DNA of 64,000 nt, from contig NZ_CP134062.1 of assembly GCF_031583025.1 (NCBI RefSeq), forward strand, positions 2,480,001-2,544,000, written 5' to 3'. A program made the translations under genes and the position numbers. Within the stretch, counting starts at the first letter, position 1, and every line of letters starts with the position of its first letter. Under the pieces are notes generated by a model. The model was not told the origin of the DNA and did not search any database. It saw only the letters and a program-made list of their open reading frames with translations. Shown here piece by piece: positions 30,961-32,580 of this stretch. The DNA is from Mycobacterium sp. Z3061 (lineage in GTDB: Bacteria; Actinomycetota; Actinomycetes; Mycobacteriales; Mycobacteriaceae).

Positions 30961-32580
<1,620 letters not shown>

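What the first reader, a model, noticed from the sequence alone, without database searches (positions are those of the whole stretch)
31120..31136. Illumina adapter sequence embedded in the PE_PGRS gene
Seventeen consecutive bases equal the start of the standard Illumina adapter (seen directly; adapter sequence from general knowledge). They encode DALPIW in the middle of a Gly-Gly-Ala/Asn repeat, and the PGRS reading frame changes exactly there. A chance 17-base match at exactly a frame break is very unlikely. Repeat-rich PGRS DNA is where short-read assemblies commonly fail, so this is almost certainly an untrimmed read end used to bridge a gap. The true local sequence is unknown and the repeat may be collapsed.
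Basis: partly seen in the sequence, partly recalled or inferred. Interest (0 to 1): 0.72.

Follow-up and report, generated by a model that had tools for sequence, protein, structure and literature searches.

The report
Sequencing adapter left in mycobacterial genome
A short piece of laboratory sequencing adapter stands in place of natural DNA in a repeat-rich mycobacterial gene, one of 28 such leftovers found in this genome record, so the apparent gene break there is an assembly error rather than biology.

Summary
Window 31120-31136 is 17 bases of Illumina TruSeq adapter inside a PE_PGRS gene whose reading frame changes there. It is not isolated: the single-contig 6.79-Mb genome holds 28 exact copies of the 13-base adapter core (about 0.2 expected), and each continues into a TruSeq arm, one with a mismatch. 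All lie in very GC-rich DNA, 23 of 28 at Gly-rich PGRS-type frames. Among 297 genomes of the genus this one has the most; a same-species genome has none.

In the five relatives printed beside the site, both flanks are in register and the adapter stands in place of about as much ordinary PGRS DNA: neither a plain insertion nor a collapsed repeat. Four of five further sites tested show the same. This fits untrimmed read ends overwriting the consensus where coverage was poor, which is inferred. A second, adapter-free frame change near 31670 was missed. Single-frame orthologues exist. Adapter contamination of public genomes is documented (PMC11536531). Verdict: artefact, useful as a quality warning.

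The parts
31120..31136 (+). 17 bases identical to the start of the TruSeq read-through adapter, universal arm (13-base core plus 4 arm-specific bases), in place of native PGRS DNA
   Evidence: (L020)
31670..32580 (-). First piece of the PE_PGRS gene: PE domain and start of PGRS repeats (reading frame A)
   Evidence: ORF 31435-32595; PF00934 E 4.6e-32, PF21526 E 1.5e-6 on 32000-32595
31137..31669 (-). Middle piece of the PGRS region, in a different reading frame (B)
   Evidence: ORF 30860-31534
30961..31119 (-). Last piece of the PGRS gene with its stop codon, back in the frame of the first piece
   Evidence: ORF 30961-31311
31660..31690 (-). Second frame change in the same gene, without adapter sequence; probable further sequence error, not proven
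31001..32000 (.). Sharp G+C peak of the window (0.808; next highest 1-kb tile 0.718); poor short-read coverage expected here (inference)

Best explanation
This is leftover Illumina TruSeq adapter in a genome record. In extremely GC-rich PGRS DNA few full Illumina reads cover the sequence, and some of those that reach it come from short fragments and run into the adapter. These untrimmed ends were used during consensus correction (or local gap closing) of a contiguous backbone, so that at 28 places the first 15-23 adapter bases took the place of native bases and the sequence then returned to the native one. Shown: adapter identity, number, GC and PGRS bias, absence from the relatives checked, replacement in register at five sites, frame changes. 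Inferred: low read coverage as the cause, and correction of a backbone as the step. The 0.97 is for adapter artefact; correction rather than gap closing I put at about 0.7.
For: 28 exact 13-mers against about 0.2 expected, reversed control 0. Beyond the 13 bases searched for, 27 of 28 continue 4-10 further exact bases into a TruSeq arm (18 index, 9 universal); the 28th (L024) reads as universal arm to 23 bases with one mismatch. The 10-mer too occurs only at these 28 places, its reversed control once. GC around the sites is 0.74-0.82 against 0.677 in control tiles; 23 of 28 sites lie at Gly-rich frames against 7 of 80 control tiles. The frame changes at 17 of 21 sites whose two flanks are clearly Gly-rich. 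At the window site 5 of 5 relatives printed have ordinary PGRS DNA with flanks in register, and 4 of 5 non-PGRS sites show replacement against a same-species genome. Of 296 other genus genomes, 22 have any copy, at most 7 each, and the same-species genome has none. A close relative's published chromosome was made in a way that could do this: PacBio contigs corrected by mapping raw Illumina reads (PMC6616192, passages).
Against: No raw reads were available, so coverage and the correction step are not shown. The genome could not be tied to a named record; the relative's published chromosome is 6,730,319 b, not 6,790,973, so its method is only an analogy. At L027 the same-species genome lacks about 360 b around the adapter, which does not fit simple replacement. 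Only 6 of 28 sites were compared with relatives, 5 of them cleanly. At 4 of 21 judged sites the frame is kept.
Confidence: 0.97

Rival explanations
1. A variant within the artefact reading: adapter-ended Illumina contigs or reads were used to close real gaps between contigs, with possible loss of repeat units.
For: Sites lie in PGRS genes, where draft assemblies break: in the same-species draft this gene is split between two contigs. At L027 the lengths differ by about 360 b from that genome.
Against: At the window site and four others the flanks run in register with relatives and about as much native DNA is replaced; a bridge by chance overlap would not be expected to keep register.
Confidence: 0.25
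2. The 17 bases are natural sequence that resembles the adapter by chance.
For: A 13-base match can occur elsewhere: 22 of 296 other genus genomes have at least one, seven of these with a copy near a contig start and so likely adapter too. In shuffles of the window 6 of 100 had a match with up to one mismatch.
Against: 28 copies, each continuing into an adapter arm; none of the five relatives printed has it at the orthologous place.
Confidence: 0.005
3. The sequences are physically in the organism's DNA (an engineered or tagged strain, or a mobile element).
For: None found.
Against: The pieces are cut at different lengths (15-23 b), are of both arm types, stand in place of native bases at the sites compared and carry no cargo.
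Confidence: 0.005

Closest known systems
Adapter contamination of public microbial assemblies (Moeller et al. 2024, PMC11536531; outline with abstract and the Results section read)
   Same: Same TruSeq core and the same two arms; significant excess over chance in published assemblies.
   Different: There the copies concentrate at contig ends; here all 28 are inside one chromosome-length contig, in GC-rich DNA, and at the five cleanly aligned sites stand in place of native bases.
PE_PGRS gene between pspA / Rv2743c-type genes and a limonene-epoxide-hydrolase-type gene (PE_PGRS47 / Rv2741 position; these names and the M. tuberculosis gene order are recalled)
   Same: PE domain, PGRS repeats and the neighbouring genes are present; aligned open frames next to the Rv2743c-type gene in M. 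intermedium DSM 44049 and M. gordonae DSM 44160.
   Different: In this record the frame is interrupted twice, once at the adapter.

Membership tests
Illumina TruSeq adapter remnant | Starts at the ligation junction and continues as one of the two TruSeq arms | tested here: met
   The start is built into the pattern searched; the continuation is the test: 27 of 28 continue exactly for 4-10 more bases, one with a mismatch. Adapter letters were recalled and agree with the core and arms quoted in PMC11536531.
Illumina TruSeq adapter remnant | More copies than chance, on both strands, not shared by orthologues | tested here: met
   28 copies, 13 forward and 15 reverse, reversed control 0; the 10-mer is absent from all nine relative loci checked
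Illumina TruSeq adapter remnant | Present in untrimmed short reads but absent from long reads of the strain | not testable with these tools
   No reads held
PE_PGRS family | N-terminal PE domain | tested here: met
   PF00934, E 4.6e-32, 110.6 bits, cut-off 22
PE_PGRS family | Gly-Gly-Ala/Asn repeat domain | tested here: met
   PF21526 E 1.5e-6, 28.9 bits, cut-off 27; Gly-rich frames
PE_PGRS family | One uninterrupted reading frame in this record | tested here: not met
   Frame changes at the adapter and near 31670; two relatives have single open frames of 551 and 558 aa there. The break at the adapter is attributed to the record, not the organism.
PE_PGRS47 (Rv2741) orthologue | Gene order pspA, Rv2743c family, PE_PGRS, epoxide hydrolase | tested here: inconclusive
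   Neighbours found by Pfam; the M. tuberculosis gene order is recalled and was not compared here

The most novel reading that the evidence does not exclude
Chromosome-length bacterial assemblies can carry internal adapter scars that overwrite native bases in GC-rich genes, invisible to contig-end screens, so that many apparent PE_PGRS frameshifts in such records are artefacts.
Probability: 0.5. Interest if true: 0.3.

Novelty: not a real feature. Interest (0 to 1): 0.15.

Why it matters
It has no biological meaning in itself. It shows that a single-contig genome contains 28 adapter scars found by an exact 13-mer, 23 of them at PGRS-type frames, in a gene family whose variation and pseudogenes are often interpreted. 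Frameshift, pseudogene and diversity claims for such genes in this record should be discounted. The simple test (13-mer count with a reversed control) can screen other records.

Tried and rejected
Chance match: rejected by genome-wide counts. Collapsed repeat or plain insertion at this site: rejected by alignment with the five relatives printed. The idea that natural copies of the 10-mer are unusually missing from this genome (none besides the 28; 8 to 14 expected by Markov models of order 1 to 3) led nowhere: the same-species genome has 1 and one other of the 41 genomes has 0, so the models over-predict. Naming the strain: the published M. paragordonae chromosome has another length, and a full-text search for the genome length listed seven papers, all unrelated by title; left open. 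No tRNA genes were found in the window.

Full report
Observation. The + strand at 31120-31136 reads as the first 17 bases of the Illumina TruSeq read-through adapter, universal arm (adapter letters recalled, and agreeing with the core and arms quoted in PMC11536531). Searched with up to one mismatch, the 13-base core occurs once in the 64-kb window, exactly; 0.07 are expected, and 6 of 100 shuffles had at least one. On the minus strand it lies in a PE_PGRS gene from about 32580 to 30961: PE domain PF00934 with E 4.6e-32 and PGRS repeats PF21526 with E 1.5e-6, the latter just above its cut-off. The neighbours are pspA-type, Rv2743c-family, limonene-epoxide-hydrolase-type and glycosyltransferase-type genes. 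This looks like the PE_PGRS47 / Rv2741 position, but those names and that gene order are recalled.

Frames. The gene is read in three pieces: the first in one frame, the middle in another, the last back in the first frame. One change is at the adapter. The other, near 31670, has no adapter and is probably another sequence error, which is not proven. At the aligned place M. intermedium DSM 44049 (L048) and M. gordonae DSM 44160 (L038) have single open frames of 551 and 558 aa (lengths are mechanical, from the first possible start codon).

Genome-wide count. The window lies in a 6,790,973-base, single-contig genome (G000). It holds 28 exact 13-mers, 13 forward and 15 reverse; the reversed control has none. 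Markov expectations of order 1 to 3 are 0.15 to 0.20. The 12-mer and the 10-mer occur at the same 28 places and nowhere else; the reversed 10-mer occurs once. The start of the adapter is built into the pattern, so the test is what follows: 18 sites continue as the index arm (19-22 bases in all), 9 as the universal arm (17-23), and one (L024), which the script labels with another Illumina arm at 15 bases, reads as the universal arm to 23 bases with one mismatch.

Where they are. G+C in the 413 bases around the sites is 0.738-0.816 (mean 0.775), against a mean of 0.677 in 580 control tiles from 20 stretches of the same genome; 49 of the 580 tiles reach the lowest site value. 23 of 28 sites lie at Gly-rich open frames by a fixed rule, against 7 of 80 control tiles. 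In the window the adapter sits in the single sharp G+C peak (0.808 for 31001-32000; next 1-kb tile 0.718). Across the adapter the Gly-rich frame changes at 17 of the 21 sites whose two flanks are both clearly Gly-rich; 4 keep the frame; 7 sites could not be judged. With random lengths about 14 of 21 would change, so the frame changes are what a non-coding artefact gives and are no evidence of more.

Relatives. Of 297 genomes of the genus, 23 including G000 hold the 13-mer. The other 22 hold 41 copies together, at most 7 in one genome; the same-species genome G006 holds none. Seven of the 22 have a copy within 42 bases of a contig start (G032, G106, G112, G127, G145, G163, G218), the usual contig-end contamination. 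Four genomes had one match each to the reversed control.

What the adapter replaces. I compared 30900-32700 with 25 relative loci (23 of the 80, and 2 of G006); 7 of 25 gave a match at the threshold used, and 6 of these cover the site. Five were printed: L037, L038, L039, L040 and L048; the sixth, L117 of G006, gives the same alignment as L039 and is probably the same record. In all five the flanks on both sides stay in register, the adapter stands opposite ordinary PGRS DNA, and the stretch differs in length by a few bases, not a multiple of three. Hence the frame change, and no visible loss of repeat units at this site. Of the five sites outside PGRS-type frames, four (L009, L021, L026, L036) show replacement against G006, with differences concentrated in the adapter zone: 14 of 24, 10 of 38, 11 of 85 and 11 of 57 differing columns (zones of about 64 columns for L009 and 33 for the others, in alignments of about 1000). 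At the fifth (L027) G006 lacks about 360 bases around the site, which is against simple replacement or reflects an error in one of the two records. The other 22 sites were not compared with relatives.

Mechanism. Replacement in register is most simply explained if a contiguous backbone, probably from long reads, was corrected with untrimmed Illumina reads, and adapter-bearing reads decided the consensus where GC-rich DNA left little other coverage. This is inference. A published close relative, M. paragordonae, was built from PacBio contigs corrected by mapping raw Illumina reads (PMC6616192, passages only). Its chromosome is 6,730,319 bases, so it is not shown to be this record. Filling of short gaps with adapter-ended reads remains possible.

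Known or new. Adapter contamination in public microbial assemblies is documented, mostly at contig ends (PMC11536531, abstract and Results read). Here the copies are internal to one chromosome-length contig. In my literature searches no listed title or start of abstract described this pattern in PE_PGRS genes; these listings were partial (15 of 18, 20 of 21, 15 of 1,021, 7 of 7 and 1 of 1), and only open-access text is held, so this is no claim that it is unpublished.

Verdict. The further claims, a bridged gap and a collapsed repeat, are not supported at this site. It is an artefact of the record with no biological function.

Noticed in passing
31660-31690: A second frame change in the same PE_PGRS gene, without adapter; probably another consensus error in the same GC peak.
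   Followed up: partly
Genome G000, 27 further sites (loci L009-L019 and L021-L036): The same adapter in 27 other places, 22 of them at PGRS-type frames; apparent frameshifts there are suspect too.
   Followed up: yes
L027:1160-1517: The same-species genome G006 lacks about 360 bases around this adapter site; true difference or assembly error not resolved.
   Followed up: no
Genomes G032, G106, G112, G127, G145, G163, G218: Adapter core within 42 bases of contig starts in seven other genomes of the genus; G231 and G267 hold five copies each, most of them well inside contigs.
   Followed up: no
11242-11398: Tandem repeat of 56 bases, 2.8 copies, 95% alike.
   Followed up: no
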